Shown: positions 1,869-16,637 of the stretch, in pieces
Position numbering within the stretch: position 1 is the stretch's first letter
Layout: each line of letters starts with the position of its first letter
Origin: Halomicronema sp. CCY15110
GTDB lineage: Bacteria; Cyanobacteriota; Cyanobacteriia; Phormidesmidales; Phormidesmidaceae
NCBI RefSeq assembly: GCF_016888165.1
Contig: NZ_JACSWC010000269.1
Span: 1 to 34,247, forward strand
Direction: 5' to 3'
DNA length: 34,247 nt
Program-made: the position numbers and the translations under genes
The notes under the pieces: generated by a model
What the model saw: the letters and a program-made list of their open reading frames with translations, nothing else
What the model was told of the DNA's origin: nothing
Databases searched by the model: none

Positions 1869-2762
1869 CTAGACGGAAATCGGGAATGTACGCTGTGCCT
1901 GTGGAGTCAAAATCACGGTGAACTCTTGCACGCAAAGCTCATCGTCGGATAAATGTTGAAACTCTTGTGCCAGTTTGGCTCTAGGGATGGGCAAACTGTC
2001 CCACCGTTGTATATCAGTGACTTCAACGGCAAAGCCAGTCGCTTCAAATAATCTGATCATTTCAGAATACCGAATTCGGTTGGTATAGAAACCTGATGAC
2101 GCCATGAATTCAGATTCCCAAACCCGTCCTGAAAACCTCAAATTATTCAGGGAGCCTCCTAAATGATCTTTTAAGTCAATGGTATGAGAGCATTTTCCAT
2201 TTTCTCGAATGATCCGACGCAGCTCTTTCATGGTGGCGACAAAATCACGCTGGCGGACATGCTCTAAAACTGCTTGGGACCAGACGAGATCCACAGACTT
2301 ATCGGGTATGGAGTGCAGAGAATCCAGGCCATCCGTCAAATATTGGCAATCATACAGTTCTAAAATCTGCTCAGGTGAAGAAGCTGAATCCTTTAGCTTG
2401 GTGAGGCGATCGCTTTGAAATTTAAGATCAGATGCCTGGAGAAAAGTTTCCGCCTTTTGATACACGCTCAGCTGAAAATTCGCGAAATATCCTGAGTCTA
2501 CTAAGTAACAGCGAGAACCGCCAAAAGCCTTGTTCATAATGGCCGACAGGACGGAATCACCAGGCCCTAATTCCAGAGACACAAAGTTTTTAGGGGGCTT
2601 AACATTCTCGAAATGTGTTTTGAAAATCGAATATGAATATTCAACAGACTCCATATAACCATGTCTAAATATTCCGATCTTTTTCCAGAAAGAATAGCCG
2701 ACTGGTAATCGTCTTAAAAGTATTTTGGCGAGGATCTTAATCTGCCAGGGTACTCTACTCAC
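1869..2762 (-). CDS. SAM-dependent methyltransferase, last gene of the glycan cluster
   Basis: A 297-residue protein with a methyltransferase-like core: LELGPGDS is a variant motif I near residues 63-70, YLVDSG follows as beta-2, then DKSVDLVWSQAVLEHV (the post-motif typical of Methyltransf_11) and a later RRIIRENGKCSHTIDLKDH region. The basic, hydrophobic N-terminus (KILAKILLRRLP) may touch the membrane. The start is GTG at 2762, supported by an AGGAG seven bases upstream; no in-frame ATG lies near. It is 104 bases downstream of asnB and is the promoter-distal end of the minus-strand glycan cluster. Likely acts on a sugar or lipid-linked glycan intermediate (inference); the acceptor is unknown. 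Confidence 0.8.
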   Translation of the reverse strand: MSRVPWQIKILAKILLRRLPVGYSFWKKIGIFRHGYMESVEYSYSIFKTHFENVKPPKNFVSLELGPGDSVLSAIMNKAFGGSRCYLVDSGYFANFQLSVYQKAETFLQASDLKFQSDRLTKLKDSASSPEQILELYDCQYLTDGLDSLHSIPDKSVDLVWSQAVLEHVRQRDFVATMKELRRIIRENGKCSHTIDLKDHLGGSLNNLRFSGRVWESEFMASSGFYTNRIRYSEMIRLFEATGFAVEVTDIQRWDSLPIPRAKLAQEFQHLSDDELCVQEFTVILTPQAQRTFPISV

Positions 2763-2769
2763 TAATCAT

Positions 2770-2774
2770 CTCCT
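2770..2774 (-). promoter_or_regulatory. Ribosome binding site deciding a GTG start
   Basis: AGGAG on the minus strand, seven bases before the GTG at 2762. An ATG that lies between the two is out of frame and hits a stop after three codons, so the GTG is the probable start of the methyltransferase. Confidence 0.6.
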
Positions 2775-2866
2775 GCTGCTATTAATCAGTGTTTCCCACG
2801 AAAATAACTGAGCCGCAACTGAAACGCGCAGGTAGGCCATGGCCTGTGTTGCTGGCTAGCTTCGCA

Positions 2867-4819
2867 CTAGGAAACATCATAGGTATCTAACCACGCTTGA
2901 AAGCACAGCACATTCCAGAGGGGATATTGCAGATTCTGAGCGCCAGAAAGATGGGTTAACCAAGCCTGATGAACTGGTTCAGCATTTAAAATGCCCTGGG
3001 ATTGTAGTCGGTCTTTGTTGAGGAGATCGCCCGCCCACGTCTGTAACGGTCCCCTTAACCAATCACTGATCGGCACACTAAACCCCATTTTGGGACGCTC
3101 AATCAAGGCTGGTGGCACGTAGCGGTTTAAGACTTGTCGCAATAGCCATTTGCCTTTGCCTTGGCGGATTTTGTAGGACATCGGTAGCGTTTGGGCAAAC
3201 TCCACAACTTGATGATCCAGAAAGGGAATGCGGGTTTCCAGGCTGACCCCCATAGCGGCACGGTCGACCTTGGTGAGGATGTCGTCGGGCAAATACATCT
3301 GGGTGTCTAAATACATCATCCAGGGAATGAAATCATCGGTGGCAGACCAGGGGGGGCGATCGCTCAACACCGTATGCGCCTCTTGCTCCAGCCCCGACAC
3401 CAACGCCACAGGATCAGCCCAGTGAGAAATTAGCTGGGAATACAACATTTCGGGACTATTGGCAGTCAGCGCCTGAGCCAGTTTATGCAGTTTTTCGCCA
3501 GGCAGGCGTTGCTGTAGAGGGGGCGGCAGCACCGGTAGGGTTTGCCAAAGGTGATCCCAAGCTTGGGGCGATCGCTGGGTAAGGAATTGGGCGATCGCGC
3601 GGCGGCCCGCTGGCGGCAGCCATCCCACCTGTCGCCAAAGGCGATCGGCCCATAGATAGCGGTTGTATCCACCAAAAATTTCATCGCCGCCATCGCCCGA
3701 AAGACTGACGGTGACTTGCTGCTTGGCGAGCTGAGCAATTAGAAAAGTCGGAATTTGAGACGGGTCGGCAAAGGGTTCGTCATAGAGGGTTGAGAGGTGA
3801 GGAATGACCGCCTGGGTCTCGGTGGGTGTCACATATAGTTCGGTGTGCTCGGTGCCGAGATGATGAGCCACGGCTCGGGCGGCTTGGGCCTCGTTGTAAG
3901 CCGCTTCTTGAAAGCCGATGGTAAAGGTCTTGATCGGACGTGTGCTCTGAGCCTGCATCAAAGCGACAACTGTCGATGAATCAATCCCCCCCGACAGAAA
4001 GGCCCCCAGCGGCACATCGGCCACCATCTGCTGCCGAATGGTCGATTGCAAGAGGGTGTCTAGTTGGGTCATCGCGGCGGTTTCATCGCCGACAAATGGC
4101 TGCTGTTGGCCTTGCTCAATAGCGGCGTCCATAGACCAGTAACGCTGTGGCGTGGAGCGAGAGCTAGGATGGCCGGACTCTAGCCGCAGCAAGGTGCCAG
4201 GGGGCAGCTTATAGATGTTCTGATAAATGGAGTGAGGGGCGGGAATGTAGCTGTAGCGCAGGAGCAGAGCCAGGGCTTGACGATTGAGCTGGCCTTGCCA
4301 GTGTGGATGTGCCTGGAGCGCTTTGAGTTCGGAACCAAAAAGCAAGGTAGAACCCAGCCAACCGTAATACAAGGGTTTTTCGCCGCAGCGATCGCGACAC
4401 AGCGACAACACTTGATCGGCCCGATCCCACAGAGCAAACGCAAACATGCCCACACATTTCTGAATCGCGGCTTCCAGCCCCCATTCGCTAAAGGCGGCCA
4501 GCATCACCTCCGTATCCGAAGTTCCTCGAAAGCCATGCCCTAACCGCAACAGGTCGGCTTTCAGTTCAGCAAAGTTATAAATCTCACCATTGAACGTCAG
4601 CACATAGCGCCCATCGGCAGACTGCATGGGTTGTTGTCCCTGAGGCGACAGATCGAGAATCGCTAAGCGTCGATGTCCCAAGCCCACATTGACTGCCGGA
4701 TCAAACCACGTTCCTTGATGATCGGGGCCTCGATGGAACAAAGCAGTACCAGCCTTGGCAAGAAATTCTTGCGAAATTGCTGCTGGCAGATTAGCCCATG
4801 TACCGTATATGCCACACAT
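2867..4819 (-). CDS. asnB: Glutamine-hydrolysing asparagine synthetase-type amidotransferase
   Basis: A 650-residue AsnB-family enzyme. The N-terminal class II glutaminase begins MCGIYG, so Cys2 becomes the catalytic nucleophile after Met removal; HRGPDHQG is at 29-36 and LTFNGEIYN at 74-82. The C-terminal synthetase domain carries the PP-loop SGGIDSS at 276-282 that binds ATP. All residues expected for glutamine hydrolysis and adenylation are visible, so it should be active. It may make asparagine, but its location among glycosyltransferases and methyltransferases fits the AsnB-like amidotransferases of polysaccharide clusters, which convert sugar carboxylates (for example uronic acids) to amides; that assignment is inference. 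ATG start at 4819. It is separated from the upstream methyltransferase by about 180 gene-free bases, so it may have its own promoter. Confidence 0.93.
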   Translation of the reverse strand: MCGIYGTWANLPAAISQEFLAKAGTALFHRGPDHQGTWFDPAVNVGLGHRRLAILDLSPQGQQPMQSADGRYVLTFNGEIYNFAELKADLLRLGHGFRGTSDTEVMLAAFSEWGLEAAIQKCVGMFAFALWDRADQVLSLCRDRCGEKPLYYGWLGSTLLFGSELKALQAHPHWQGQLNRQALALLLRYSYIPAPHSIYQNIYKLPPGTLLRLESGHPSSRSTPQRYWSMDAAIEQGQQQPFVGDETAAMTQLDTLLQSTIRQQMVADVPLGAFLSGGIDSSTVVALMQAQSTRPIKTFTIGFQEAAYNEAQAARAVAHHLGTEHTELYVTPTETQAVIPHLSTLYDEPFADPSQIPTFLIAQLAKQQVTVSLSGDGGDEIFGGYNRYLWADRLWRQVGWLPPAGRRAIAQFLTQRSPQAWDHLWQTLPVLPPPLQQRLPGEKLHKLAQALTANSPEMLYSQLISHWADPVALVSGLEQEAHTVLSDRPPWSATDDFIPWMMYLDTQMYLPDDILTKVDRAAMGVSLETRIPFLDHQVVEFAQTLPMSYKIRQGKGKWLLRQVLNRYVPPALIERPKMGFSVPISDWLRGPLQTWAGDLLNKDRLQSQGILNAEPVHQAWLTHLSGAQNLQYPLWNVLCFQAWLDTYDVS

Positions 4820-4998
4820 TTAAGGCATCCCCATTGCTGATACAAAATGCTGACCGTCGTCAAATTTGGGAGATGCCGATTTCATTCGACTGAAGCGTCC
4901 GGCGTCGCAACTCTCCATGGGTTCTCCAAAAGATGTTAGTAGTGGTGCCCATTCCACATAAAAGTCGGTTTATACGATGAACAAAATATTTATGCCTA

Positions 4999-5787
4999 TC
5001 AGGGATCGCTTTTCTTGAGATCACCGATCAGGCCAATATACTTACCCCGAAACTCAAAGACATGCCATGCCGGAGGTTGGTTGTTTTCGATATAGTCATA
5101 AAAATAGGAATTGTCCTGAATGTCGTCCATCAAAATGATTCCCATGCTACTCATTTTAGACTTAGCTTGAGTCATGGCCAGCTCTCGTCCCGAGTAACTT
5201 TTGTCTGAGTCGTAGTGAAAGATATCAACCTGATTGACCTGTTGAAATATTTTTGGCAGATTGACTTCATCGCCTTCTAGGTACAAACTCCAATTACTTT
5301 TAAGCGATTCTGGCACCACGATACCAATGTAGCGTTCGGGGCGAGGTAGCCGAAAATAAGGAAAGTCACTACTGTAAAGTGAACCTGTGGCATTGGCTGC
5401 GATCGCGGACAAGAAAGCATGGGAAGAAAATCCTGCGGCCACACCAGTTTCAACGACTATTTCAGGCTTGAGGTAGCGAGTGATGAAATAAAGGAATGGG
5501 TAACCACCGCCCCCCCCAAGGTCAAATTCGATATCTTTCAAAATAACGTCTGCATGTTTCTCTAGGGCTACCGCATACTGGGTAGATTCTTGCCATAAAT
5601 CGGCATCTAGACGCTGAGCAATCGCTTCAAAACTAGAGCAGTGACTTTTTAGCCATGCCATATTTTCAGCTTGAGAATGCTTTCCAGATGAGTCAAATAA
5701 TCTTTTCAATACCTTTTTCGACATCACCGAAAATCTGCCGGGTTTTTGAGCCTGAGCGAGAATGTTCTTGAGGTTATTATTTTGCAT
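4999..5787 (-). CDS. Class I SAM-dependent methyltransferase (Methyltransf_24-like)
   Basis: A 262-residue protein. The glycine-rich motif I ETGVAAGFSS lies at about 113-122, preceded by a short FDLGGGGGYPF turn, and is followed by SLYSSDFP (beta-2) and IILMDDIQDNSYF (beta-4/5 acidic motif). This arrangement is that of the Methyltransf_24 group used in many glycan and cell-wall clusters. The longest reading frame begins at a TTG at 5829 with no Shine-Dalgarno sequence, so ATG at 5787 is preferred; it gives a polar start (MQNNNLKN). It lies 65 bases after the GT4 gene on the same strand and is likely cotranscribed. Acceptor unknown; O-methylation of a sugar is the simplest inference. Confidence 0.78.
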   Translation of the reverse strand: MQNNNLKNILAQAQKPGRFSVMSKKVLKRLFDSSGKHSQAENMAWLKSHCSSFEAIAQRLDADLWQESTQYAVALEKHADVILKDIEFDLGGGGGYPFLYFITRYLKPEIVVETGVAAGFSSHAFLSAIAANATGSLYSSDFPYFRLPRPERYIGIVVPESLKSNWSLYLEGDEVNLPKIFQQVNQVDIFHYDSDKSYSGRELAMTQAKSKMSSMGIILMDDIQDNSYFYDYIENNQPPAWHVFEFRGKYIGLIGDLKKSDP

Positions 5788-5852
5788 AGGTTCAACTAAA
5801 AAACAAGACGTAGTAACAGCGATTAGCAAAAAGATTCAACTCAATTATGAGT

Positions 5853-6983
5853 TCAATTCAGGCAATTGCGATAGCCAATAGGACAGATCTCATGCAATAG
5901 GGATTCCCAGCGATCAAGCACATTATCGACGTGGTGATTTTCTAAGCTATCAGTAGTGCCATTAGATAGCGCCTTCAGTAAATCCTCATCAATCATAATT
6001 TGCTTTAACTGGGTGGCGAGTGCTGTGGCTCTACTAGCCGCCGCATCTACGAGAAAACCATTGACACCCGATCGCACGAGCTGATTAATCCCTTGGCAGT
6101 CTTGGAAGCCGACCGTCGGCAAACCATAACTCAGGGCCTCAACAGCAGTAAGTCCAAAGCTTTCGTATCGCGAAGGCATGACGAACAGATCGGCTGCTCG
6201 ATATTCTGACGCGATATTTGGGGTCGACTCGACTAAAGTGATTTGCTCGCTCAAGCCCAGTGCTTGAATCTGGTCTGCCAGCATCGCCCTTAAGCTGCCA
6301 TCGCCAATAATGCGGAGATGCCACTCTGGGCAATCCGTCGCGATTTGGCTAAAGGCGTTAATCAACGTAGCGTGATCCTTTTGGGGTTCTAACCGACCCA
6401 CCGCTAACAGAGTCTTGCCCACCCGTGGGCAGGGTGGAGGCGATGTAGAAGCTGGACTGAGTACAACCGGGTTGGCGATCGCTATCATACGCTGTCGCAG
6501 GTACCAGGGATATGACAAACGAACTTGTTCTGATACACAGGTAGTCCGGCGCACTAATAATGGTGTGATAGAAAGCAAGAGAGTCTCGATCCAGCGGCGC
6601 GATCGATAATGCTCTGGCACGATATGCTCACTGGCGATCAGGGGGATGGCGGTGCCCATCAAGGCCAAACCGAGGGGAATAAACATACTGTGCATAAAAC
6701 CGATCGCTACCTCTGGGGCATACTCCAAAACCGCTTGGCGTAGGGCCGGCAAACGCTTGATGGTTTCGACCATAGTGGCCGGATGCACGGTTGAGCCAAT
6801 GTCCAAATCAAGCCGTCGAATACTCTGATTGAGGGGATAAAAGGATTGACCACCCGGTTGTTCAAAGGTCAAAATCGCCACCTCATGACCGCGCTCAGCT
6901 AACCCATTCGCGACGGTCGCCAACACGCGCTCGGCACCACCGCCAGGGTTATTCATCGCCTTGATGCCAAATAAAAGTTTCAT
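5853..6983 (-). CDS. GT4-family glycosyltransferase (third of three tandem)
   Basis: A 376-residue GT-B retaining glycosyltransferase. The N-terminal domain opens with the GT4-type PGGGAERV loop (13-20); the C-terminal Glycos_transf_1 domain has VGRLEPQK (195-202), the IIGDGS turn (225-230) and the EX7E catalytic/nucleotide motif at E274-E282. It transfers a sugar from a nucleotide donor to a growing lipid-linked glycan at the inner face of the membrane (family knowledge); the sugar cannot be predicted. Its ATG overlaps the stop of the preceding GT4 gene by four bases (ATGA at 6980-6983), a sign of translational coupling. It shares an N-terminal SFYPLNQ-like segment with the other two GT4 proteins, so the three are probably paralogues. 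Confidence 0.92.
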   Translation of the reverse strand: MKLLFGIKAMNNPGGGAERVLATVANGLAERGHEVAILTFEQPGGQSFYPLNQSIRRLDLDIGSTVHPATMVETIKRLPALRQAVLEYAPEVAIGFMHSMFIPLGLALMGTAIPLIASEHIVPEHYRSRRWIETLLLSITPLLVRRTTCVSEQVRLSYPWYLRQRMIAIANPVVLSPASTSPPPCPRVGKTLLAVGRLEPQKDHATLINAFSQIATDCPEWHLRIIGDGSLRAMLADQIQALGLSEQITLVESTPNIASEYRAADLFVMPSRYESFGLTAVEALSYGLPTVGFQDCQGINQLVRSGVNGFLVDAAASRATALATQLKQIMIDEDLLKALSNGTTDSLENHHVDNVLDRWESLLHEICPIGYRNCLN

Positions 6984-8092
6984 GTTTGGACCACATCACT
7001 CAAAACGCCTTGCCACTGGTTGAAAATCTTGACCGGTTCATACTCGCGAATGCTCATAATGGCATTTTGGCCCATGTTTTGGCGCTGCTGAGCAGACTGC
7101 ATCAAGGGGGCAAGGGTGGCGGCTAGGGCCGCTGGATCATTTATGCCAGGGGCTAATACGCCGTTTTGGCCAGGGGTAATTAAATCTGCCATGCCGGCGC
7201 ACTGGGCAAAGCCAACCCCCGGCAAGCCATGGGCCAAGGCTTCTGCCAAGGCGTTAGGAAAGCCTTCCCAGAGGGACGGCAAGCAGAAGAGATGGGCGTT
7301 GATGTACGCCTCGGTAATGGCCGTGGTGACGCCGGATAGGGCAATGCGATCGCCCAACTGCGGCATGTCGATTAAGTGTTGTAGGGCTGCTTGCTCTTCG
7401 CCTGCGCCCACGATCTTTAAATCCCACATGGGGAATTGGGGGGCGAGCAAGATAAAGGCTTGGATGAGGACTGCAAAGTTTTTTTGATAGCTCAATCGAC
7501 CGACGGAGAGCAAGCACCAACGTCCCTGGGCATTGGGAATGTGAGGTTGGGCAAACTGACTCGCAGGCAATACTGGGTTAGGAATGGTGATGATGCGATC
7601 GCGCAGAAATTCGGGATAGTGCGATCGATAGCTCTCACACTGCACGAGAATGCGTTTTGCCCACCGAAAAACTTGATAGGTTAAGCGCTGGGTGTTGGGG
7701 GCGTTGAGATATTTAAAGCGCGAAGGAGCATTCCGTTCGGCAACGATGATGGGCATGCGGATGCCCATGGTGTATAAACGAACGGAAAAGAACGTGCCGG
7801 ACTGAAAGCACACGACCACATCCGGCTGGGAGCGCCGAATTAACTGGCGCACCATCAGCAGACGCCGCAGCTTCATCCAGGGAGTAGCTTTGATGGTGGG
7901 ATCCCCCAAACTTAAGCGGTGCCAAACGACCCGCTGATCAAGGGGGTAAAACGAGGTAGCGGCGCTGCCATCCCAGGTCATGAACTCGATATGGTGACCA
8001 CGACAAACGAGAGCATTCATGATTGTTGTAATCATGCGCTCTACGCCCCCGGCCATTTGATGAATTGCCCGCGCCACAAACAGAATTCTCAT
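6980..8092 (-). CDS. GT4-family glycosyltransferase (second of three tandem)
   Basis: A 370-residue GT-B enzyme. The N-terminal glycine loop is AGGVERM (14-20), followed by SFYPLDQ (47-53); the C-terminal half has VGRLSYQK (197-204), IVGAGEE (227-233) and the EX7E motif EGFPNALAE at 276-284. The EGFPN form is typical of GT4 polysaccharide enzymes. Its start at 8092 lies nine bases after the stop of the upstream GT4 gene and its stop overlaps the next gene by four bases, so the three are cotranscribed. Donor and acceptor sugars are unknown. It is complete, with normal length. Confidence 0.92.
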   Translation of the reverse strand: MRILFVARAIHQMAGGVERMITTIMNALVCRGHHIEFMTWDGSAATSFYPLDQRVVWHRLSLGDPTIKATPWMKLRRLLMVRQLIRRSQPDVVVCFQSGTFFSVRLYTMGIRMPIIVAERNAPSRFKYLNAPNTQRLTYQVFRWAKRILVQCESYRSHYPEFLRDRIITIPNPVLPASQFAQPHIPNAQGRWCLLSVGRLSYQKNFAVLIQAFILLAPQFPMWDLKIVGAGEEQAALQHLIDMPQLGDRIALSGVTTAITEAYINAHLFCLPSLWEGFPNALAEALAHGLPGVGFAQCAGMADLITPGQNGVLAPGINDPAALAATLAPLMQSAQQRQNMGQNAIMSIREYEPVKIFNQWQGVLSDVVQT

Positions 8093-8101: not shown

Positions 8102-9232
8102 CTAACGATAGGTGGTTGATATGGCTGGTTGCTCAGAGGTGGACGGCAAACCAAGCACCGTTTTCCAGGCTTGTTGCCAAGACTTAACTGAGTAACGCTG
8201 CGTGATCTGCCGAGCTGAGTGTGACCACAGTTCCCACTGTTCAGGGGTGTTAATCACCCTCAGCAAGGTATCAGCGAGAGCCGTCGGGGAAGGCGATTCA
8301 TCACATAGCCAGCCGTTAACACCCGGTTCAATTAAGTCGCTGACCCCACTGGTCGACTGAAATCCGACCGGAATGAGTCCGGCTGCCATTGCTTCCGCTT
8401 GCGCATTCGGAAAGCCTTCCCACTGTGACGGTTGACAATAGATTCTAGCCTGGGAAAACTCAGTGCTTAAATCAGATTTAGGAGGGATAAGGAAAATGCG
8501 ATCGCCCATTTCTAGCTCGTCAATCAGGGTAGCTAATTCACTTTTCAAAAAGCCATCACCAATGATGTGGAGACGCCAGTCAGGGCATTGTTGAAACACT
8601 ATGGCACAAGCTCGAATGAGCAAGTCAAAGCGTTTTTGTGGAGCATAGCGGCCCACCGAGACAACTAACGGCTGACGGACGTGTAATTCAGCGGTCGCTT
8701 CAGGTAGAAATACCGGATTATGAACAACCTTGATCTTAGAATGTAAAGTCTTGGGATAATTCTTAATGTAGCTGGGAAATTGAACGGTAATGCCATCGGT
8801 CAAGAACAGCATGAGAAAGTTGAGATTCCACTTTCTGGCCCGCACATAATGATAAATAGTCAACGAATTACGCTCTGAACAAATAACGCGAACTGATAAG
8901 CCGACAGTGCCAGCTAAGTATCGCAATAAGATGCCATGATGAAAACAAATGAGATAGTTGTAAGGGTGATCAGCTGTAAACACAGCTCTAATACGTCGAA
9001 TTAACGCAACTCTGTCACCAAAACTAATCGCCGAGTGAGCTGGCGTTCTGCCCAGTTGGTGCCACTCAATGCGATCGTCGATCGGATAAAACGCCTGCGC
9101 CCCAGGTAAATCAAATGTCAGTAGTGTGACCTGAATGCCTTGCTCGACCAAAAAATTCGCCAGGTAGATAATGTTGCGCTCTAACCCGCCGGGCATGTCG
9201 TGAAGCGCAATGGTGGCCAGGGCAATGCGCAT
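8102..9232 (-). CDS. GT4-family glycosyltransferase (first of three tandem)
   Basis: A 376-residue GT-B glycosyltransferase with PGGLERN (14-20) in the first Rossmann domain, AFYPIDD (47-53), VGRYAPQK (193-200), IIGDGF (223-228) and the EX7E motif EGFPNAQAE at 272-280. The start ATG at 9232 directly abuts the TAA of the upstream methyltransferase-like gene with no gap, so translation is probably coupled. It belongs to the same paralogous set as the two downstream GT4 genes. It would add one sugar to the lipid-linked intermediate on the cytoplasmic side; specificity is unknown. Confidence 0.92.
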   Translation of the reverse strand: MRIALATIALHDMPGGLERNIIYLANFLVEQGIQVTLLTFDLPGAQAFYPIDDRIEWHQLGRTPAHSAISFGDRVALIRRIRAVFTADHPYNYLICFHHGILLRYLAGTVGLSVRVICSERNSLTIYHYVRARKWNLNFLMLFLTDGITVQFPSYIKNYPKTLHSKIKVVHNPVFLPEATAELHVRQPLVVSVGRYAPQKRFDLLIRACAIVFQQCPDWRLHIIGDGFLKSELATLIDELEMGDRIFLIPPKSDLSTEFSQARIYCQPSQWEGFPNAQAEAMAAGLIPVGFQSTSGVSDLIEPGVNGWLCDESPSPTALADTLLRVINTPEQWELWSHSARQITQRYSVKSWQQAWKTVLGLPSTSEQPAISTTYR

Positions 9233-9901
9233 TTATGCCGACCTCACCGCATCAACAATGAGTGAGGTATTTGCATCGACAAAGTCCCAAACATGATTAT
9301 CAGGATTTTGACGACTGCGATGAATGAAGCCATCTTGAGCTGACCATTTTTTCTGTACTAACTGTTGATTAGCATCATATCCTTCGAGCAATTCAATCTC
9401 GGAGAAGCCTGCGTGACTGAGCAGGTCAAATAAGCGATCGCAGGTCAGCAGTTGCTTATGATCAGCCGCATCAGCCCCTATGCCGTTAATTCCCACATGT
9501 TTTAGATAAGTCGGATCGGGATGATAACCATCGGGCACTGCAATGCGAATCCGCCCGCCTGACATCAGATGTTGATGAATCAAGTTGAGCGCATCCAGAC
9601 TTTGTTGTGGGGTGAGGTGTTCAAAAACATGTTCAGCCACCACATGGGTGAGCAGCTGCTGCCCCTGGAAAACGGCTTGCCAGTCTTGAGCACTAGCAAT
9701 GTCTAACCATTGTTCGTTAGTCGATAGCCACTCTGGTTGAAAGGTTTCCGCAGCCCCAACGATGATTTTCAGCGGCTTGTGCTGCTTCACTTCGAAGGCG
9801 ATGCGAATGCGGCGGTAGTGATATTTAAAGAACTTGATGCCTTGGCGGACCTTAATCTTAAGAGGGACGGGTAACTTTTGTTTGATTGTTGAAAGCACCA
9901 T
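9233..9901 (-). CDS. Methyltransferase-like protein with degenerate SAM motif
   Basis: A 222-residue protein resembling the predicted SAM-dependent methyltransferases found in polysaccharide clusters. Recognisable parts are the AEHVFEHLTPQQSLDAL segment (89-105), which matches the conserved EH...EHL helix of that group, and GGRIRIAVPDGYHPDP (115-130). The usual glycine-rich motif I is replaced by IIVGAAETFQPEW (46-58), so SAM binding may be altered or lost. The N-terminus is very basic (KIKVRQGIKFFKYHYRRIR), suggesting contact with membrane or anionic lipid-linked substrate. ATG at 9901; the stop abuts the next gene's ATG. Could be an active methyltransferase with a divergent fold or an inactive partner. 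Confidence 0.68.
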   Translation of the reverse strand: MVLSTIKQKLPVPLKIKVRQGIKFFKYHYRRIRIAFEVKQHKPLKIIVGAAETFQPEWLSTNEQWLDIASAQDWQAVFQGQQLLTHVVAEHVFEHLTPQQSLDALNLIHQHLMSGGRIRIAVPDGYHPDPTYLKHVGINGIGADAADHKQLLTCDRLFDLLSHAGFSEIELLEGYDANQQLVQKKWSAQDGFIHRSRQNPDNHVWDFVDANTSLIVDAVRSA

Positions 9902-9976: not shown

Positions 9977-10969
9977 TCAAGAGACCGAGGTCTGTATCTT
10001 TTGAGTCATGCGCTGTTCATGCCGCAAGCGCTGCGGACCAGTAGCCCACAAATGCTGTGAAACAGCGATCGGATGACGAATCCACAGTTGCAGCAATTCC
10101 CATACAAAGGCATGATATTGCCGCTTAAAGTGCCAGTAACGGAGTTTTGGCCAATGGAGAGCGTAGTAATAACGATTGATAGTTTCTAAATAAGCGCGAT
10201 GTTTTTGCGCAATTTGCTGTTCAGCAACGAGATTTTTTTCATAGGATTTGTCGGCAGCGTGAGTGGAATATTGGTTAAATAAACAATCAGTCGTGCCAAT
10301 AAAATGGCCCCCTTTTAAGGCTAAGCGAATGGCTAAATCAGCGTCTTCTACCCGTCTAAGCTTTTCGTCAAAGCCCCCGATCGCGGCAAAAGTGGATGCT
10401 CGGGCGAGCAGGGCACAGGTTGGTGTGCCGGAACCATAGAACCAATCAGAACGCTGGCGGTAAGTGAGCAAATAGTCTGCCAAACCAGGTCCATGAGGCA
10501 CCCCTTCAGGCCGCGACCCGATTGCAGGCAAGGGTTTTTCGTACCCATTCGGATAGTAGCGATGACCACTGGCATAACAGGCGACTAGATGCGCTCCTGT
10601 GTTCTGTTCGTACTCACGCAGCACTTGGAGTTGGCCTGTAATACGTCCCGGTAGCCCTTCGTCATCGTCATCAAAAAAGGCAATAAACTCGCCCCTCGCT
10701 GCTCGCAAAATGGTGTTGCGACTAGCGGCTGGTCCCTGATTTTGCGGGTGTTGAATCAGCCGAATATTGGCTTCAACTGATTGGATTACAGTCTCAATGA
10801 CCGCTACGGAGCGATCGGTCGAACAATCATCCACAATCAAGATCTCACAGTGGGGCCAATCTTGGTGCAGCGCACTGTGGATGGCGCGAGCGATCGTATC
10901 CTGGGCATTAAAGCAGGGGATACCAATTGTAACTAAGGAATTATGATTTATCGGAAGAGGGGGCCGCAT
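9977..10969 (-). CDS. GT2-family glycosyltransferase (second of tandem pair)
   Basis: A 330-residue GT-A enzyme. Near the N-terminus it has TIGIPCFNAQDTI, then VDDCSTD (46-52) for nucleotide binding and the aspartate run FFDDDDE (98-104) providing the DXD metal site. A later GGFDEKLRRVEDADLAIRLA segment carries the ED acid/base region typical of family 2. The C-terminal part is basic and aromatic and may sit on the membrane. It starts with ATG at 10969 and overlaps the end of the upstream GT2 gene by 29 bases. Shared FFDDDD and late DKS motifs with that gene indicate a tandem duplication. Transfers an unidentified sugar to the lipid-linked repeat unit (inference). Confidence 0.91.
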   Translation of the reverse strand: MRPPLPINHNSLVTIGIPCFNAQDTIARAIHSALHQDWPHCEILIVDDCSTDRSVAVIETVIQSVEANIRLIQHPQNQGPAASRNTILRAARGEFIAFFDDDDEGLPGRITGQLQVLREYEQNTGAHLVACYASGHRYYPNGYEKPLPAIGSRPEGVPHGPGLADYLLTYRQRSDWFYGSGTPTCALLARASTFAAIGGFDEKLRRVEDADLAIRLALKGGHFIGTTDCLFNQYSTHAADKSYEKNLVAEQQIAQKHRAYLETINRYYYALHWPKLRYWHFKRQYHAFVWELLQLWIRHPIAVSQHLWATGPQRLRHEQRMTQKIQTSVS

Positions 10970-11927
10970 GGAATTGACGAAAGGAACGGTTGATCTTGAA
11001 ATTGCGCCAAGAAAGCACGAAACGCCGCAGGGTGGCGATGGGGTAGGTCACGCTCACCCTTGCCAACCCTACAATAAACTGCCCCCGGTTTCTCTCTAGC
11101 CAGGTATGTTTCAAACTGAGCCATTGTCGGTGAAAGTCATACAGTCCTTCAGCATCAGCGATATCGCGATGCTTGGCGAGCCACTTGAGGGTGTAGTAGC
11201 GCTCATCGGCGAGGCTCTTATCTGAGGTTGGGGTCATCGTCTGAATAACGAGCGGATCGGCAATGCCCACAACATGACCGCCAGCCTTGGCAACTCGGAC
11301 CAGGAGATCAGAGTCTTCGGCTCGCCGAAAGGCGGAGTCGAACCCCCCAACAGCTTGATAGGTTGACAATCTGGCCAATTGCGAGCAGGTGGGGCAAGAC
11401 CCATAGCTATCTTCTAGGGGAGTGCCCAAAACGGCCCGCCGGGCCAATGCCATGCCGTAGGGCGCGAGTTGCCCCTCTCGTTGACCGATAGTGGGGTGAA
11501 TGAGTGCTGAGCCGTCAGGATATTTCACCAAGCGAGCGGTGTGACATAGCACCATTGCCCCATTCGCAAATTGACGCTCGTACTCCAAAATGCGATTCAA
11601 TTGTCGTTCTAGGCGATCGGGTAGGCTAATATCATCATCATCAAAAAACGCGATGAATTCCCCTCTTGCCAGCGCTAAAATCCGATTACGCGTAGCCGCA
11701 ACTCCTAGATTTTGGACATTTTGGCCAACCGTAATCCGCGCATCTGACTCAGCCATTTCCGTAACTATAGCCAGCGTTGAATCATCAGAACAGTCATCAA
11801 CAATGAGGATTTCGATGTCTTGGTAGGTTTGTTTTAATGCTGACTGAATGACATCTTCAATGGTTGAAGCGGCATTGAAGGTAGTGATGCCAATCGTGAT
11901 TCGTGTTCGTGACTTGTGGCAATCCAA
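10941..11927 (-). CDS. GT2-family glycosyltransferase (first of tandem pair)
   Basis: A 328-residue GT-A enzyme with TIGITTFNAASTI at 11-23, VDDCSDDS at 43-50, GEFIAFFDDDDI at 89-100 as the DXD site, and GGFDSAFRRAEDSDLLVRVA further on, which holds the ED acid/base motif. The start is TTG at 11927: no ATG or GTG lies upstream of the conserved beta-1 strand, and an AAGGA on the minus strand (11937-11941) lies nine bases before it. It is cotranscribed with the second GT2 gene (29-base overlap) and follows the Wzy-like gene after a 62-base gap. Function: sugar transfer in repeat-unit assembly; specificity not readable. Confidence 0.9.
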   Translation of the reverse strand: MDCHKSRTRITIGITTFNAASTIEDVIQSALKQTYQDIEILIVDDCSDDSTLAIVTEMAESDARITVGQNVQNLGVAATRNRILALARGEFIAFFDDDDISLPDRLERQLNRILEYERQFANGAMVLCHTARLVKYPDGSALIHPTIGQREGQLAPYGMALARRAVLGTPLEDSYGSCPTCSQLARLSTYQAVGGFDSAFRRAEDSDLLVRVAKAGGHVVGIADPLVIQTMTPTSDKSLADERYYTLKWLAKHRDIADAEGLYDFHRQWLSLKHTWLERNRGQFIVGLARVSVTYPIATLRRFVLSWRNFKINRSFRQFHAAPSSDKS

Positions 11928-11989: not shown

Positions 11990-13150
11990 TTATTTGGTTA
12001 GAATTAATCGTTTTCGCACCAATGATGGACTCTTTGGAGTCATCGAGAAAAACAGGATAAACCCGGTGCAAATCCCCATGATGAGTAACAAGTTACTACG
12101 GGGTAATATCCACGGCTGACTTTGATTGAATACAGCATTGATGACAAAGAAAGCGGAACAGGCCGCAACCAAACCACCCCTACCTTGCGCTAGACGCCGC
12201 AATGCGAAACCAGCGATAACTATAAATACGGTGACCAGCATCAGCAGGCCCACAGCGCCATATCCGCTGCCAAATAGCAAATAAGGATTTTGCACTTGGC
12301 CCATTTTTTGCCAATCATCAAAATCGAGGTCATACCGATCATTGATGCCCCAAGGGTTATGAGTTGTCATCAACGTCGCAAACTCTTGGGCCGTTCCGGG
12401 GTAGTCAGCCCCCCTAAATCCTCCTTGCAGCGTCATCCATAGGCCTGCGATTGATGAATAAAGCCGCTGACCAAAGGCACTCTCTAGCTGACGGACAAAA
12501 CACTCTGCGAAACTGATTTGTGAGCATGTGCCCCTGCCGCGCACGGTAATATCTAAGTCTCTAGAATCCTCAGATTCTAATTCACTTGCTAGGTTGAGGC
12601 GATCGAAGACGGTAACTAGAGCATCGCGGGTGTTCACATAAGCTGATTGAACAACCGCCCCTGCTCCCGAGTACTCGATCATTCGGGCGTAGCCAATCAT
12701 CGAAAAATAAACGACTATGCCTACAGCTACATAACTCAAATAGCGACGGAAGACAGCTCCAAAGCTGAGCCGTTGGCTAAATATTGAGATCAACAGAATT
12801 GCTAACATCAAAAGCCCATAGGAAACCTTTCCTCCAGATAAGAATATTGCAGACATGCAAAGGGCGGACGTGTACTTTTTGCCCAAGGCGATGGAGCAAA
12901 GGAATAAAAAAATGAGCACAGTAGAAACGTCATCACCAAAAAACAGAAAAGCTCTCTTGTAGGAAAAATTATAGGAATAGACTTCACCAATATCGAAAAG
13001 GAAGCTAAAGAAAATACCACTGCTGACAAGAACTGCAACCCAAGTGAGCAAGGCAGGTTTTTTTTGTATTCCGAAGCACAGCACTAAACCCACCACGAAA
13101 GTCAGGAAAGTCTGAACCAAGTTAGAAGATAGGAGATACTCAATATTCAT
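11990..13150 (-). CDS. Polytopic membrane protein, candidate Wzy-type polymerase
   Basis: A 386-residue integral membrane protein with roughly nine to ten hydrophobic helices. Six or so lie in the first 160 residues, followed by a large polar loop (about 175-280, containing charged stretches and two cysteines in GTCSQISFAECF) and then further helices near the C-terminus. Many helices plus one large extracytoplasmic loop is the layout of O-antigen/exopolysaccharide polymerases, and the SGGKVSYG segment in a re-entrant-like region resembles the O-antigen ligase/polymerase family. Sequence of these families is poorly conserved, so this is a context-supported guess. ATG at 13150. It sits between methyltransferase and glycosyltransferase genes, where a polymerase is expected. 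A different membrane transferase is possible. Confidence 0.65.
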   Translation of the reverse strand: MNIEYLLSSNLVQTFLTFVVGLVLCFGIQKKPALLTWVAVLVSSGIFFSFLFDIGEVYSYNFSYKRAFLFFGDDVSTVLIFLFLCSIALGKKYTSALCMSAIFLSGGKVSYGLLMLAILLISIFSQRLSFGAVFRRYLSYVAVGIVVYFSMIGYARMIEYSGAGAVVQSAYVNTRDALVTVFDRLNLASELESEDSRDLDITVRGRGTCSQISFAECFVRQLESAFGQRLYSSIAGLWMTLQGGFRGADYPGTAQEFATLMTTHNPWGINDRYDLDFDDWQKMGQVQNPYLLFGSGYGAVGLLMLVTVFIVIAGFALRRLAQGRGGLVAACSAFFVINAVFNQSQPWILPRSNLLLIMGICTGFILFFSMTPKSPSLVRKRLILTK

Positions 13151-13299
13151 GACTGTAGCAACATCGACATCTGTTATTTGTCATCTTAACCACAGCATTA
13201 GCTCAAACAAATTGATTAAAGAATGTATAGCTTGAATTCGATATTTTACTTGTTTGGTAGCAAGTGTAATATGACGGCTTACCTGGCTTAGGACTTAAC

Positions 13300-14175
13300 T
13301 TAAGGGCCAGATGAAGTTCCCTGCTTAATTCCCCAGAAAGCAGATGCCGGGCGCTGCTTGGCTTTTTCTCCTAGAATCTGCCAGACCTCAGCTAGCGGTT
13401 GATGATGCATTTCATTTCGGCATATCCAATAGTTAGGTAATTGAATATCAAAGTAATTGGGATTTGCTAAAAGCATAGCGGCAAGTAAATATTGCTCGTT
13501 ATAGGCTCGCTCAGACCAACTCTCAAAGTAGTCGAACGGCAAGAAGATGTCGTGAATACCAACAATAACTCCCGGCTTTAACCGAGGCACTATCTCTAAC
13601 ATGCAAACCGTCACGTCAGAATTCATGAAGCTGCGGTGCGAGTTATCAATAAACACCACATCGCCTACTTCTAACTGATCAAACAAACTCAGATCAATAG
13701 ATTCGACTGGTTGGCGAATAACTTGATTACAAATAGCATCAATCTCTGCTCTAGGAAAAGGATCAATCGAGACGATTTCTTTTGACTCGTCATAAAAATC
13801 TAAAGCAGCTTTAACAAACTTGGTTGAGTTGCCAGATCCAACCTCGACTAATCGATTGGGTGCCTGCCTGACAAATTGAATTAGTGCCAGAGCGTCTAAA
13901 ACAGGTAAAAAACTATTGTGCCAGTCTAAATCTTGGCTAAGGTTGTGACTGTCTTGAGATGCCAGCACAAAGTCCTTCATCTTAGAGAGTTTAGCCAGGT
14001 TCTCTTGATATTTGAATGCGCCTGGCTCAATAACTGCTTTTAGATAAGGATTACCCTGTTGCCACCGTGGCGTCATCTTGACATCATATTCAAGATAAAT
14101 TGGCTTCTGCCCGATAGCGATCCGATGAACGGCCTTCAGATATGAATTTCGGCGTAATAGTTCACGGATGTTCAT
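13300..14175 (-). CDS. Class I SAM-dependent methyltransferase (Methyltransf_24-like)
   Basis: A 291-residue protein with motif I LVEVGSGNSTKF (about 109-120), EIVSIDPFPR (beta-2), DVVFIDNSHRS with an acidic beta-4, and KPGVIVGIHDIFLPFDY near the C-terminal core. The order and the IDNSHRS/HDIFLP pairs are typical of Methyltransf_24 proteins from glycan clusters. The longest frame starts at a TTG (14181), only two codons before an ATG at 14175; the ATG is used here, though a GAGAA lies close upstream of the TTG. It is 149 bases from the Wzy-like gene and 99 bases from the preceding methyltransferase, wider spacing than elsewhere in the cluster. Base composition is lower in GC than in the flanking genes. 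Confidence 0.78.
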   Translation of the reverse strand: MNIRELLRRNSYLKAVHRIAIGQKPIYLEYDVKMTPRWQQGNPYLKAVIEPGAFKYQENLAKLSKMKDFVLASQDSHNLSQDLDWHNSFLPVLDALALIQFVRQAPNRLVEVGSGNSTKFVKAALDFYDESKEIVSIDPFPRAEIDAICNQVIRQPVESIDLSLFDQLEVGDVVFIDNSHRSFMNSDVTVCMLEIVPRLKPGVIVGIHDIFLPFDYFESWSERAYNEQYLLAAMLLANPNYFDIQLPNYWICRNEMHHQPLAEVWQILGEKAKQRPASAFWGIKQGTSSGP

Positions 14176-14274
14176 TCTCAAATTCTCATGAAATGATTTT
14201 CTTTTCAGATACGCAATGACAGAAATATCGGATGCCCTACCAAAAATATGATTTTTGACAGGTGCGAATGAGGG

Positions 14275-14982
14275 CTAAGGAAACTTTTGAATCACGATAA
14301 AGTGAAGTTGTTCAAGACTTGCAGCCTTTTTGGGAGCCTGCAAAATCTCTTTAACACCGTACTTACCTTGACTCCATGAAACTATCAAATACGGCATCAA
14401 AAAAAGATCTGCGCCGAAGGGATCAAGTGCGCTGGTTCCTTTTGGCGCATGAAGTGAACTGTGCTCGACAATACAAACTCCGCCTGGTTTCAAGCAACTC
14501 ATCCAGGTATTAAGACATTTCTCTGGATCGTAGCTGTGGTCAAAAGAATTGCTGTAAATAAAATCTACAGCTCCTATCCATTCCGGCTTAGCTTCGTGAA
14601 AGTCCCACTGTATAGTGTCTGGAAACTCCTGGGCAGTATTTGATATCTCCGTGCCAATAACATCACAGCTCAGATACTTCTTGAACCATTCTTGTTCTTT
14701 TCCTCTACGAGTCCCATGACATAGACCAAACCTGGCTTCAGGAACAAGCTTCTTAATATACCCTGACAGAAATTCTATATTTTCTTCGATCACCCAAACA
14801 AGAGATATCTTTCTTTTGTTGCCCTCCTCTTGAAGTCCTCGATAACGCTCATAATCAAAGCTTCCATCTTGGTTTAAAAAATTGTAGAGAACGTATCCTG
14901 GCATCTCCACTTTTACTTGTGTGATGTGATTAAGCTCGTAACCAAACCTTTTCAAGGTGTTTTTCAAGAAATTTGTCACCAT
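14275..14982 (-). CDS. Methyltransferase-like protein, AT-rich gene
   Basis: A 235-residue protein. The predicted core includes ARFGLCHGTRRGKEQEWF, an unusual glycine-poor motif I (about 82-99), DVIGTEIS (beta-2), DFIYSNSFDHSYDPEKCLNTW (acidic motif and following helix) and KPGGVCIVEHS (162-175 region), which is the clearest methyltransferase signature. It resembles class I methyltransferases but with a divergent SAM loop, so activity is uncertain. Start ATG at 14982 is preceded by GGAAG four bases upstream. It lies 15 bases after the upstream methyltransferase and is surely cotranscribed. The gene is clearly AT-rich compared with gcvP or argF, which fits acquisition by transfer. Confidence 0.65.
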   Translation of the reverse strand: MVTNFLKNTLKRFGYELNHITQVKVEMPGYVLYNFLNQDGSFDYERYRGLQEEGNKRKISLVWVIEENIEFLSGYIKKLVPEARFGLCHGTRRGKEQEWFKKYLSCDVIGTEISNTAQEFPDTIQWDFHEAKPEWIGAVDFIYSNSFDHSYDPEKCLNTWMSCLKPGGVCIVEHSSLHAPKGTSALDPFGADLFLMPYLIVSWSQGKYGVKEILQAPKKAASLEQLHFIVIQKFP

Positions 14983-14997
14983 AATTCTTCCAGCACA

Positions 14998-15819
14998 CTA
15001 AACAGTAGTCGAGATCTTCTGAGCGCTTATCAGATATCCTAGAGGAGCGTTGCAAACTTGATGATCCTGTTTCCAGGAAAACTTGCTTTGTTTCATATAA
15101 CGTGACTGAAAGTAAATGATGTCCATCATGAGAGCAAAGTTTTGCCTGATGAACTTTAGAGGGCCAGGAATTCCACAAACATTAAGCCCAGTTGAAAAAG
15201 GTCCCCAGGTGATGGCTTCAATTTCAATATGCTGAAACTTATTATTCGATAAGATATTGTACCAATAGCTTGGTGTTCCTCTGATGAAATCATTTGGACA
15301 GCCATGAACACGAAACATAAAAGGAACAGTAAAAAATAATCGACCTTGAACTTCTAAAACCCGATATGACTCTGCAAGAATATGCTGTAAATCATAAATG
15401 TGTTCAAAAGTGTTCAGAGAAATTATGACATTATATTTTCCAGAAGCAACTGGTAATTTTTCACCTGGTTTAACGACATAGGTGGGCTTTGCCGTTGCAT
15501 CAATATTTACCGATTCATAAATCAATTCATTGTCTGTTTGAGACCATTGTTTTATGCGCTCATAATAATCGGTTGCAGCGCCACCACCAATGTCTAAGAC
15601 ACAACCAGATAATGGGATTTCCGCAAAAATTTCGTATTCTAAGTCACGTAAGACGCTGAAATTTTTCTTTAAGAAGAATAGTTGAAAAAAACGTCTCCAA
15701 GTGGGTGGGCGAAGTTTTACCTCAATCTCATCAGTACGTAAAATATCTTGATGAAGCATACCAAACCTATCAATGGAACACAATAGAGTGAATATAACTT
15801 TCTGAATCAATGATGACAA
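14998..15819 (-). CDS. Class I SAM-dependent methyltransferase (Methyltransf_11-like)
   Basis: Motif I VLDIGGGAATDYYER is clear, followed by ESVNIDATAKPTYV (beta-2), YNVIISLNTFEHIYDL (motif II with FEH), and YRVLEVQGRLFFTVPF; a CPNDFIRGTPSYW segment follows, as in many glycan-cluster methyltransferases. The start is uncertain: TTG at 15819 gives 273 residues and 13 bases of overlap with the FkbM gene, TTG at 15810 gives a TTGA four-base overlap, and ATG at 15759 gives 253 residues with a weak AGG upstream. The extra N-terminus contains a hydrophobic stretch (VIFTLLCSI). A sample of 60 bases inside the gene (15421-15480) has only 18 G or C. Substrate unknown. Confidence 0.8.
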   Translation of the reverse strand: MSSLIQKVIFTLLCSIDRFGMLHQDILRTDEIEVKLRPPTWRRFFQLFFLKKNFSVLRDLEYEIFAEIPLSGCVLDIGGGAATDYYERIKQWSQTDNELIYESVNIDATAKPTYVVKPGEKLPVASGKYNVIISLNTFEHIYDLQHILAESYRVLEVQGRLFFTVPFMFRVHGCPNDFIRGTPSYWYNILSNNKFQHIEIEAITWGPFSTGLNVCGIPGPLKFIRQNFALMMDIIYFQSRYMKQSKFSWKQDHQVCNAPLGYLISAQKISTTV

Positions 15820-16637
15820 AACATCAGGGGCTTGCTGGAGAGGCGGTTGTTGACTGATTGAACGATAGAATATTTGCTCTTTAAGACCTGCAATACTTTT
15901 TCGACATTACATAGCTCGGGATGTAATTCAACAACAACAGATTTAACTTTGTCTAGAGCATCAGGGTGATTGCAGAGAAAATTTTCTTCGCCCCCTTCGA
16001 TATCAATTTTCATCAAATCAACTCCCTCATGTTGAGGATCAAGGTGATTTAGCAAGCTCCGAAGGCTGATGCTGTGTACCGAAATATCACCCTCCGAGTT
16101 GAGTCGATGACTCATGGAGGGGCCGACACTAGAAAAGCTAAGAAACTCGTCATCAGTGGCACCCGCAGCTTTTTCAAGTATTTCCCAGTGAAATCCTTGG
16201 GAAGCTAGCTTCTGACTATTTCGTAAACTGATTTGGAAGGTATCTGGATCAGCTTCGACACTCAAAACTTGAGCTTGAGTGTTCACCGAAAGTGCCCAGA
16301 TTGCAAACGTGCCAATGTGTGCTCCGATATCTAGGACTTTGGGGCGATCGCAAGTCGCTAGCAAGGGCCTGAGGAAATCATATTCTTGTAACACCAAGAC
16401 TTCGTATAACGCGAATTCATCAGTTCCCCGAAAGCTGATACTAAACTGTCCGGAACGAACCGTTTGAATTCTGTCTTGGTGGCGTCGAATCTGACGAATT
16501 GTGGTAAACGTTTGCCAGGGACTACCAGTCAATCGCAACATCCAAGAGGCCCGACGTGAAAAGTCAACAACCCGCTTAGAGAAACCTCCTACGTGAGTGA
16601 GATTAGCAGAACTCGGTTGTTTGGCGTCTGTGTTCAT
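15807..16637 (-). CDS. FkbM-family methyltransferase
   Basis: A 276-residue protein of the FkbM type. It has VLDIGAHIGTF (about 101-111) as the SAM loop, VLSVEADPDTF as beta-2, a central region of moderate conservation, and the family hallmark LMKIDIEGGEENFL (208-221), followed by VVVELHPEL. FkbM proteins are O-methyltransferases, frequent in polysaccharide and macrolide clusters. Start ATG at 16637 shares its A with the TGA stop of the ABC transporter gene (TGATG), indicating translational coupling; a GTG one codon earlier (16640) is the alternative. It probably methylates a hydroxyl of a glycan sugar; the acceptor is not deducible. Confidence 0.9.
   Translation of the reverse strand: MNTDAKQPSSANLTHVGGFSKRVVDFSRRASWMLRLTGSPWQTFTTIRQIRRHQDRIQTVRSGQFSISFRGTDEFALYEVLVLQEYDFLRPLLATCDRPKVLDIGAHIGTFAIWALSVNTQAQVLSVEADPDTFQISLRNSQKLASQGFHWEILEKAAGATDDEFLSFSSVGPSMSHRLNSEGDISVHSISLRSLLNHLDPQHEGVDLMKIDIEGGEENFLCNHPDALDKVKSVVVELHPELCNVEKVLQVLKSKYSIVQSVNNRLSSKPLMFCHH

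What the first reader, a model, noticed from the sequence alone, without database searches (positions are those of the whole stretch)
1869..16637. Seven methyltransferase-like genes woven into one glycan cluster
Seven different methyltransferase-like proteins (genes ending at 1869, 4999, 9233, 13300, 14275, 14998 and 15807) sit among five glycosyltransferases. They are not recent copies of one another: they belong to at least three types (FkbM, Methyltransf_24-like, Methyltransf_11-like) and two have damaged SAM loops. Most glycan clusters hold one to three. The product may be a heavily O-methylated polysaccharide or glycan, or a glycan whose methylation pattern is variable. This is the strongest candidate for an undescribed system in the window.
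Basis: partly seen in the sequence, partly recalled or inferred. Interest (0 to 1): 0.68.

Follow-up and report, generated by a model that had tools for sequence, protein, structure and literature searches.

The report
Methyltransferase-packed, swappable cyanobacterial surface-sugar locus
A cyanobacterium carries a block of genes that probably builds a cell-surface sugar chain decorated by up to seven different methyl-adding enzymes, and related species appear to have swapped parts of the block, so the decoration of the cell surface looks prone to change.

Summary
Seven methyltransferase-fold (MT) genes without detectable similarity to one another lie among three GT4 and two GT2 glycosyltransferases on one strand (1869-16640), behind an ABC exporter. 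Six pass Pfam cut-offs; the seventh (9233) belongs to a conserved family with a non-canonical motif I. The two 'damaged SAM loops' are shared with homologues, so not decay.

The density is unusual: 60 Wzx-anchored cyanobacterial loci held at most 2 MTs per 17 kb, 20 MT-anchored loci at most 4, 15 others at most 5.

Relatives explain more. Same-genus G003 keeps six of the seven in the same order. Most of its central genes are closer to the window's than two backbone genes are, with MT6 replaced and MT5 missing. G001, the nearest relative, has at the same chromosomal site a different middle with pseudaminic acid genes, and again seven MTs, two orthologous.

Best reading: an exchangeable surface-glycan locus (O-antigen, EPS or glycoprotein type) whose MT set turns over. 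O-methylation, flippase and polymerase roles are inferred, not shown. Closest characterised analogue: the Tannerella forsythia O-glycosylation cluster. New variant of a known kind.

The parts
1869..2762 (-). MT1, Methyltransf_11-type; orthologues in G003 (50% id) and G001 (68%)
   Evidence: Pfam; synteny; alignment
2867..4819 (-). AsnB-like glutamine amidotransferase (PF00733 + GATase; best NCBIfam hit TIGR03108, below its cut-off); probably amidates an acidic sugar (inferred)
   Evidence: 74% in G003
4999..5829 (-). MT2, Methyltransf_24-type; orthologues in G003 (69%) and G001 (61%)
   Evidence: Pfam
5853..6983 (-). GT4 a; likely holds one recombination breakpoint (N-terminal tiles close to G003, C-terminal tiles saturated)
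   Evidence: Pfam; tiles
6980..8092 (-). GT4 b
   Evidence: Pfam; 87% in G003
8102..9232 (-). GT4 c
   Evidence: Pfam; 87% in G003
9233..9901 (-). MT3, MT-fold family with non-canonical motif I (IVGAAET); Pfam only below cut-off; 46-48% homologues in two 1.7-1.8 Mb genomes
9977..10969 (-). GT2 a
   Evidence: Pfam
10941..11927 (-). GT2 b
   Evidence: Pfam
11990..13150 (-). membrane protein, 7 hydrophobic helices by a simple scan, candidate Wzy-type polymerase; no Pfam/NCBIfam family; full-length homologue only in G003 (85%)
   Evidence: structure model unusable (pLDDT 37)
13300..14181 (-). MT4, Methyltransf_24-type, intact EVGSGxST motif; 91% in G003
14275..14982 (-). MT5, Methyltransf_11-type with variant motif I; absent from G003; weak matches in 3 of the other 337 genomes searched
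14998..15819 (-). MT6, Methyltransf_11/23-type; 53% in G003 and synonymously saturated (replaced allele)
15807..16640 (-). MT7, FkbM family; 82% in G003, 89% in G002
16637..18463 (-). ABC exporter half-transporter, PglK/MsbA/HepA-like; candidate lipid-linked oligosaccharide flippase
18949..20796 (+). PglF/WbpM/CapD-type nucleotide-sugar dehydratase (PF02719), divergent from the ABC gene
   Evidence: Pfam; NCBIfam (best hit PseB, below cut-off)
20917..22836 (+). 639-aa membrane protein, 12 hydrophobic helices by a simple scan, no family; possible GT-C-type enzyme (guess only)
   Evidence: 58% in G001; structure model unusable

Best explanation
A horizontally exchangeable surface-glycan biosynthesis locus of a Halomicronema/Leptolyngbya-type filamentous cyanobacterium. 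Inferred steps: the PglF-type dehydratase makes a 6-deoxy amino sugar nucleotide; five GTs build an oligosaccharide on a lipid carrier; an AsnB-like enzyme amidates an acidic sugar; several of the seven MT-fold enzymes O-methylate particular sugars; the PglK-like ABC exporter flips the unit; the membrane protein at 11990 polymerises or transfers it. Shown steps: gene content and order, purifying selection on MT3, MT4 and MT7, recombination of the central genes apart from the backbone with replacement of MT6 and gain or loss of MT5, and a high MT count at loci of this type in three genomes (7, 7 and 6). Selective reason (inferred): the methylation set changes surface recognition, for example by phages or grazers.
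For: Families. Synteny: G003 keeps MT1, asnB, MT2, three GT4, MT3, two GT2, the membrane protein, MT4, MT6, MT7, ABC and divergent PglF in the same order, without MT5. dN/dS window vs G003: MT3 0.10, MT4 0.07, MT7 0.13. pS of eight central genes (GT4b to MT7, MT6 left out) 0.31-0.56 against backbone OTC 0.71 and gcvP 0.67 and flanking locus genes MT2 0.87, asnB 0.79, MT1 0.83, ABC 0.73, PglF 0.74. GT4a goes from 0.25 to 0.7-0.8 along its length; MT6 is at 0.83 within the block. G001 is the nearest of five same-genus genomes at OTC and gcvP; 22 backbone genes lie at pS 0.34-0.62, but MT1, MT2, ABC, PglF and the 639-aa gene at the same site lie at 0.71-0.88. Its middle carries PseB, PseC, PseG and PseI above NCBIfam cut-offs and five other MTs. 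G002 and G003 are sisters at the backbone (OTC pS 0.21, gcvP 0.30) yet saturated along most of ABC. Density controls.
Against: No chemistry. No initiating phosphoglycosyltransferase, Wzx or O-antigen ligase was recognised among the window proteins scanned, so assembly depends on genes elsewhere. The polymerase call rests on hydrophobic helices and neighbourhood; the structure model failed. MT specificity is unknown: no solved homologue by sequence for MT4 and MT2, only HemK at E 0.03 for MT7 (MT1, MT3, MT5, MT6 not searched). The ABC protein's best PDB matches are eukaryotic ABCB1/ABCB4 pumps, with PglK lower down. ABC relatives need not carry MTs: none recognised in L069, L070, L072, 2 in G005, one of them below the Pfam cut-off. 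The shared block is not uniform: the first two tiles of GT2a (0.93, 0.74) and one of MT4 (0.82) are saturated. The breakpoint at the ABC 3' end rests on one tile (0.47; other tiles 0.58-0.91). The G003 backbone rests on two genes. The G003 block lies on a contig without the OTC gene, so its chromosomal site is unknown.
Confidence: 0.7

Rival explanations
1. Some of the seven are not methyltransferases: MT-fold proteins with altered SAM loops (MT3, MT5) or Methyltransf_24-type proteins (MT2, MT4) may act as other glycan-modifying enzymes or even glycosyltransferases, so the glycan carries far fewer methyl groups.
For: MT3 lacks a canonical motif I in all 7 aligned sequences and falls below the Pfam cut-off; MT5 has a variant loop. 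The K. pneumoniae O4 terminator (GT137) shows partial structural similarity to methyltransferases (PMC11231755, passages).
Against: In T. forsythia the canonical motif I is found only in MtfJ, yet knock-outs of mtfO and mtfY each lose a methyl group (PMC6120980, passages).
Confidence: 0.25
2. MTs act mainly as chain terminators that cap the polymer before export, as methyltransferase-kinase enzymes do in Wzm/Wzt systems.
For: Methylphosphate termination is known for ABC-dependent O-antigens (PMC11231755, passages).
Against: The exporter is a fused half-transporter, not Wzm/Wzt; there are seven unrelated MTs, and Pfam shows no kinase domain in them.
Confidence: 0.1
3. The locus makes a secreted glycosylated small molecule rather than a surface glycan.
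For: AsnB-like enzymes and ABC exporters also occur in natural-product clusters (asnB has sub-cut-off hits to cyclase models).
Against: No core biosynthetic gene was recognised; the GTs, PglF and the allelic pseudaminic acid genes of G001 fit surface glycans.
Confidence: 0.06
4. An accidental pile-up of decaying, transferred genes.
For: MT5 has few relatives; base composition is uneven: MTs 37-48% G+C, GTs 49-54%.
Against: The ORFs are intact; order is kept in G003; dN/dS is 0.07-0.20 for eight central genes. MT5 has no close homologue and could not be tested.
Confidence: 0.03

Closest known systems
Tannerella forsythia general protein O-glycosylation cluster (mtfJOY, gtfSMILE, asnB, pse/leg) (PMC6120980, passages)
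   Same: One cluster with a flippase, five GTs, several mutually dissimilar MTs, AsnB, and a nonulosonic-acid block that differs between strains (compare G001); MTs without the canonical motif I are still needed for methylation.
   Different: 27 kb with 3 MTs (one more in Leg strains) for two methyl groups, Wzx flippase, protein-linked. Here 7 MTs in about 15 kb, an ABC exporter, unknown acceptor.
Campylobacter pgl locus with the PglK ABC flippase and PglF dehydratase (recalled apart from the hits)
   Same: PglF-type dehydratase beside a PglK-like ABC exporter.
   Different: ABC scores 246 bits against a PglK cut-off of 1000; no oligosaccharyltransferase recognised among the window proteins by Pfam; MT-rich.
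HepA heterocyst envelope polysaccharide transporter
   Same: Best NCBIfam hit of the ABC protein (295 bits).
   Different: Cut-off is 725 bits; Leptolyngbya-type relatives do not form heterocysts (recalled).
O-methylated O-antigen clusters such as Rhizobium etli CE3, and methylated cyanobacterial polysaccharides such as calcium spirulan
   Same: Several O-methyl sugars on a polysaccharide; spirulan composition per PMC8146687 (passages); R. etli recalled, no paper on it by title in the listing.
   Different: No gene-level comparison was made here.

Membership tests
Wzx/Wzy-dependent polysaccharide locus | Wzx flippase (PF01943/PF13440) in the locus | tested here: not met
   No such hit among the window proteins scanned; the PF01943 genes found in this genome lie on contigs C291, C299 and C370
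Wzx/Wzy-dependent polysaccharide locus | Wzy polymerase | tested here: inconclusive
   11990-13150 is a membrane protein without a family hit or a usable model
Wzx/Wzy-dependent polysaccharide locus | Initiating phosphoglycosyltransferase in the locus | tested here: not met
   No Bac_transf or WecA/MraY-type hit among the window proteins scanned
Wzm/Wzt ABC-dependent O-antigen locus | Separate Wzm and Wzt proteins | tested here: not met
   Single protein with ABC_membrane + ABC_tran
PglK flippase | NCBIfam NF050066 cut-off 1000 bits | tested here: not met
   246 bits; PDB PglK chain matches residues 25-585 at E 8e-57, below eukaryotic ABCB pumps in the list
HepA | NCBIfam NF045513 cut-off 725 bits | tested here: not met
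   295 bits
FkbM methyltransferase (MT7) | TIGR01444 / PF05050 over cut-off | tested here: met
   70.4 vs 37.7 and 43.3 vs 22.7 bits
Methyltransf_24 (MT2, MT4) | PF13578 over cut-off | tested here: met
   35.9 and 41.4 vs 26.3 bits
Methyltransf_11 (MT1, MT5, MT6) | PF08241 over cut-off | tested here: met
   34.5, 25.3, 34.8 vs 21.2 bits
Methyltransferase of a Pfam family (MT3) | score over a curated cut-off | tested here: not met
   Only PF13489, 17.7 vs 27 bits
Exchangeable surface-glycan (serotype-switch type) locus | Same chromosomal site, different central genes in relatives | tested here: met
   G001 vs window between OTC/UbiE and PglF/gcvP
Exchangeable surface-glycan (serotype-switch type) locus | Product is a surface glycan | not testable with these tools
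   needs chemistry

The most novel reading that the evidence does not exclude
The locus is a modular 'methylation code': a scaffold (PglF, ABC exporter, MT1, MT2) whose centre is traded between species together with MTs that are also exchanged one by one (MT5 gained or lost, MT6 replaced), so lineages repeatedly reset the methyl pattern of one surface glycan under recognition pressure. Within it, MT3- and MT5-type proteins with family-conserved non-canonical SAM loops may be glycan-modifying enzymes of a kind not yet assayed.
Probability: 0.28. Interest if true: 0.62.

Novelty: new variant of a known kind. Interest (0 to 1): 0.44.

Why it matters
Methylation of bacterial glycans is called a rarely reported event (PMC6120980, passage). 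A locus with seven dissimilar MTs, close copies of its centre in another lineage and an alternative MT set at the same site would let one ask how glycan methylation patterns evolve and whether they alter phage adsorption. In Nostoc, 18 of 42 genes mutated in phage-resistant strains had cell-surface functions (PMC10811720, passages).

Tried and rejected
Structure prediction of the 386-aa and 639-aa membrane proteins (alignments A9, A10) gave pLDDT 37 and 36; no fold search was made. The one genome-contig scan, with the ABC alignment, found only 9 loci. Rfam at gathering scores and ARAGORN were empty for the window, PADLOC for the 8 proteins given. Promoter and terminator counts were not above shuffles (20 vs 23.0, 16 vs 19.4). 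Among the repeats listed I saw nothing cassette-like (capped list). The G+C difference between MTs and GTs (window p 0.0025; G003 0.009, not independent) is absent in G001 (0.93), so separate acquisition of MTs is not claimed from it. Damaged SAM loops, decay and a natural-product cluster were considered and rejected or ranked low. FkbM as such is ordinary: found in 122 of 146 genomes.

Limits of the controls. The 60 null loci come from 29 of the 34 genomes, chosen by me from its rows (those near contig starts skipped); several are not independent (G006, G019 and G034 are one genus; eight loci are from the window's own genus, G000, G001, G003, G004, G005). MT counts rest on home-made profiles seeded with MTs of the window, G001 and G005, so they may miss MTs of other kinds. 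An earlier, narrower set of profiles gave at most 2 as well. The Pfam check covered 134 non-GT proteins of 180-450 aa from 25 of the 28 null loci with at least 4 GTs, left out contig-edge ORFs and loci L132, L133 and L135, and held one row with a guessed end (L116:13702-14394). It found Methyltransf_25 in 4 of 134 and no other methyltransferase family among the 25 commonest families shown (families not shown: at most 3 members each). The 20 MT-anchored loci are part of the places; L144 overlaps null locus L113. All these profile counts have a seed bias towards the window's relatives.

Rows dropped: against G001, six pairs judged antisense ORFs (pS 0.08-0.18) and the non-orthologous GT4a pair (30% identity); against G003, three pairs judged antisense (pS 0.17-0.34).
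Full report
Check of the observation. Pfam assigns six of seven above the curated cut-offs: three Methyltransf_11 (1869, 14275, 14998), two Methyltransf_24 (4999, 13300) and one FkbM (15807); 9233 hits only Methyltransf_23, below cut-off. All-vs-all BLASTP shows no detectable copying among the seven (best E 0.7). From the ABC exporter (18463) down to 1869 the genes overlap or are separated by at most about 180 bases, consistent with one transcription unit; the promoter scan was not above chance.

SAM loops. The odd loop of 9233 is kept in all 7 aligned sequences, the window's, G003's and five from other genera, two of which (1.7-1.8 Mb genomes) are 46-48% identical (weaker matches were not aligned). 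That of 14275 shares a C-x-x-x-R-x-G-x-E pattern with two of its three distant homologues. These look like alternative loops, not decay. In T. forsythia two MTs without the canonical motif I are needed for glycan methylation (PMC6120980, passages).

Is seven many? I took 60 loci of 11-20 kb around PF01943 (Wzx) genes from 29 of 34 genomes and counted MTs with iterated profiles. The best 17-kb stretch held 2 in 3 loci, 1 in 9 and 0 in 48. A Pfam check on 134 proteins of 25 GT-rich loci among these showed one MT family, in 4 proteins, among the 25 commonest families. Twenty loci anchored on FkbM or Methyltransf_24 genes held at most 4. Fifteen loci anchored on MT1, MT3 or MT5 homologues held at most 5, in G281. 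The window holds 7 in 14.8 kb. These samples do not bound all cyanobacteria.

Relatives. G002 (uncultured Halomicronema, same call) shows the MT7-ABC-PglF end on a 6.3-kb contig. G001 has the window's chromosomal site, OTC-UbiE on one side and PglF, the 639-aa gene, gcvP, META, PsiE, fasciclin and two L,D-transpeptidases on the other, but a different centre: MT1 (68%), MT2 (61%) and the ABC gene (51%) are the clear counterparts. Its centre has PseB, PseC, PseG and PseI above NCBIfam cut-offs and five further MTs (FkbM 9940; 12533, 16197, 19751, 21708; each over at least one Pfam cut-off, 21708 by a narrow margin). That makes seven MTs over 19 kb, two orthologous. G004 has OTC-UbiE without the cluster beside it. 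Three other ABC relatives showed no MT.

Recombination. Between window and G003 the genes GT4b, GT4c, MT3, GT2a, GT2b, 11990, MT4 and MT7 have synonymous differences pS 0.31-0.56, while OTC is at 0.71 and gcvP at 0.67, and flanking locus genes are saturated (MT2 0.87, asnB 0.79, MT1 0.83, ABC 0.73). In 60-codon tiles GT4a rises from 0.25 to 0.7-0.8; the last ABC tile is 0.47 (0.52 against G002), the others 0.58-0.95, a weaker sign of a second breakpoint. MT6 is saturated (0.83) inside the block and MT5 is missing. The block is itself uneven: the start of GT2a (0.93, 0.74) and one MT4 tile (0.82) are saturated, so more than one exchange, or an older one with later patches, is likely. G002 and G003 are sisters at OTC (pS 0.21) and gcvP (0.30), yet saturated along most of ABC, and their PglF is a mosaic. 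Against G001, 22 backbone genes lie at 0.34-0.62, but MT1, MT2, ABC, PglF and the 639-aa gene lie at 0.71-0.88. The locus thus moves apart from the backbone. The G003 comparison rests on two backbone genes.

Wider pool. Homologues of MT3, MT6, GT2a, GT2b, GT4c, ABC (33%) and FkbM occur within 19 kb in G060 (1.75 Mb). G330 and G288 (about 1.7 Mb) combine PglF- and ABC-like genes with MT1 homologues (40%, 29%), G288 also with two asnB-like genes. Parts of the scaffold thus occur in genomes of picocyanobacterial size, at low similarity.

Mechanism. Inferred from families: a PglF-type dehydratase (PF02719) supplies a deoxy amino sugar; five GTs assemble; AsnB amidates; MTs methylate; a PglK/MsbA/HepA-like exporter flips; 11990 polymerises or transfers. 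No initiating enzyme or ligase was recognised in the window. The exporter is not a member of PglK or HepA by NCBIfam cut-offs, and its top PDB matches are eukaryotic ABCB pumps. Both membrane-protein models failed.

Known kinds. The layout resembles the T. forsythia O-glycan cluster (five GTs, three MTs, AsnB, strain-swapped Pse/Leg block; PMC6120980, passages), with more MTs and an ABC exporter. There three MTs serve two methyl groups, so seven MTs need not mean seven methyl groups. O-methyl sugars in a cyanobacterial polysaccharide are known (calcium spirulan; PMC8146687, passages), and MTs near cyanobacterial glycan genes have been noted (PMC4390846, passages). Searches listed no paper whose title or shown abstract start describes this locus; the listings are capped and the library is partial. 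Verdict: real, unusual in degree, a new variant of a known kind.

Noticed in passing
window 20917-22836: 639-aa protein with 12 hydrophobic helices and no family, next to PglF also in G001 and G005; the G005 copy is split into two frames.
   Followed up: partly
window 29185-34064: Two tandem L,D-transpeptidases (YkuD), then a GT2-GtrA fusion and a PMT_2 protein; the transpeptidases are also in G001.
   Followed up: no
L034 3927-5837 against L032/L033: PglF of G002 and G003 is a mosaic: middle tiles pS 0.32-0.45, ends 0.69-0.98, suggesting recombination inside the gene.
   Followed up: partly
L180 (G281 C52): Another MT-rich glycan locus with 5 MT-profile hits in 20 kb.
   Followed up: no
L210 4927-6750 (G209): Single ORF matching both the MT and GT2 profiles, a possible MT-GT fusion.
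   Followed up: no
L176 and L207, right-hand ends: Giant ORFs (4994 aa and 2846 aa, both cut by the end of the fetched stretch) near MT3 and MT1 homologues in about 1.7 Mb genomes.
   Followed up: no
window 1160-1801: UbiE-like MT divergent from the OTC gene, kept beside it in G001 and G004; backbone, not part of the glycan block.
   Followed up: yes
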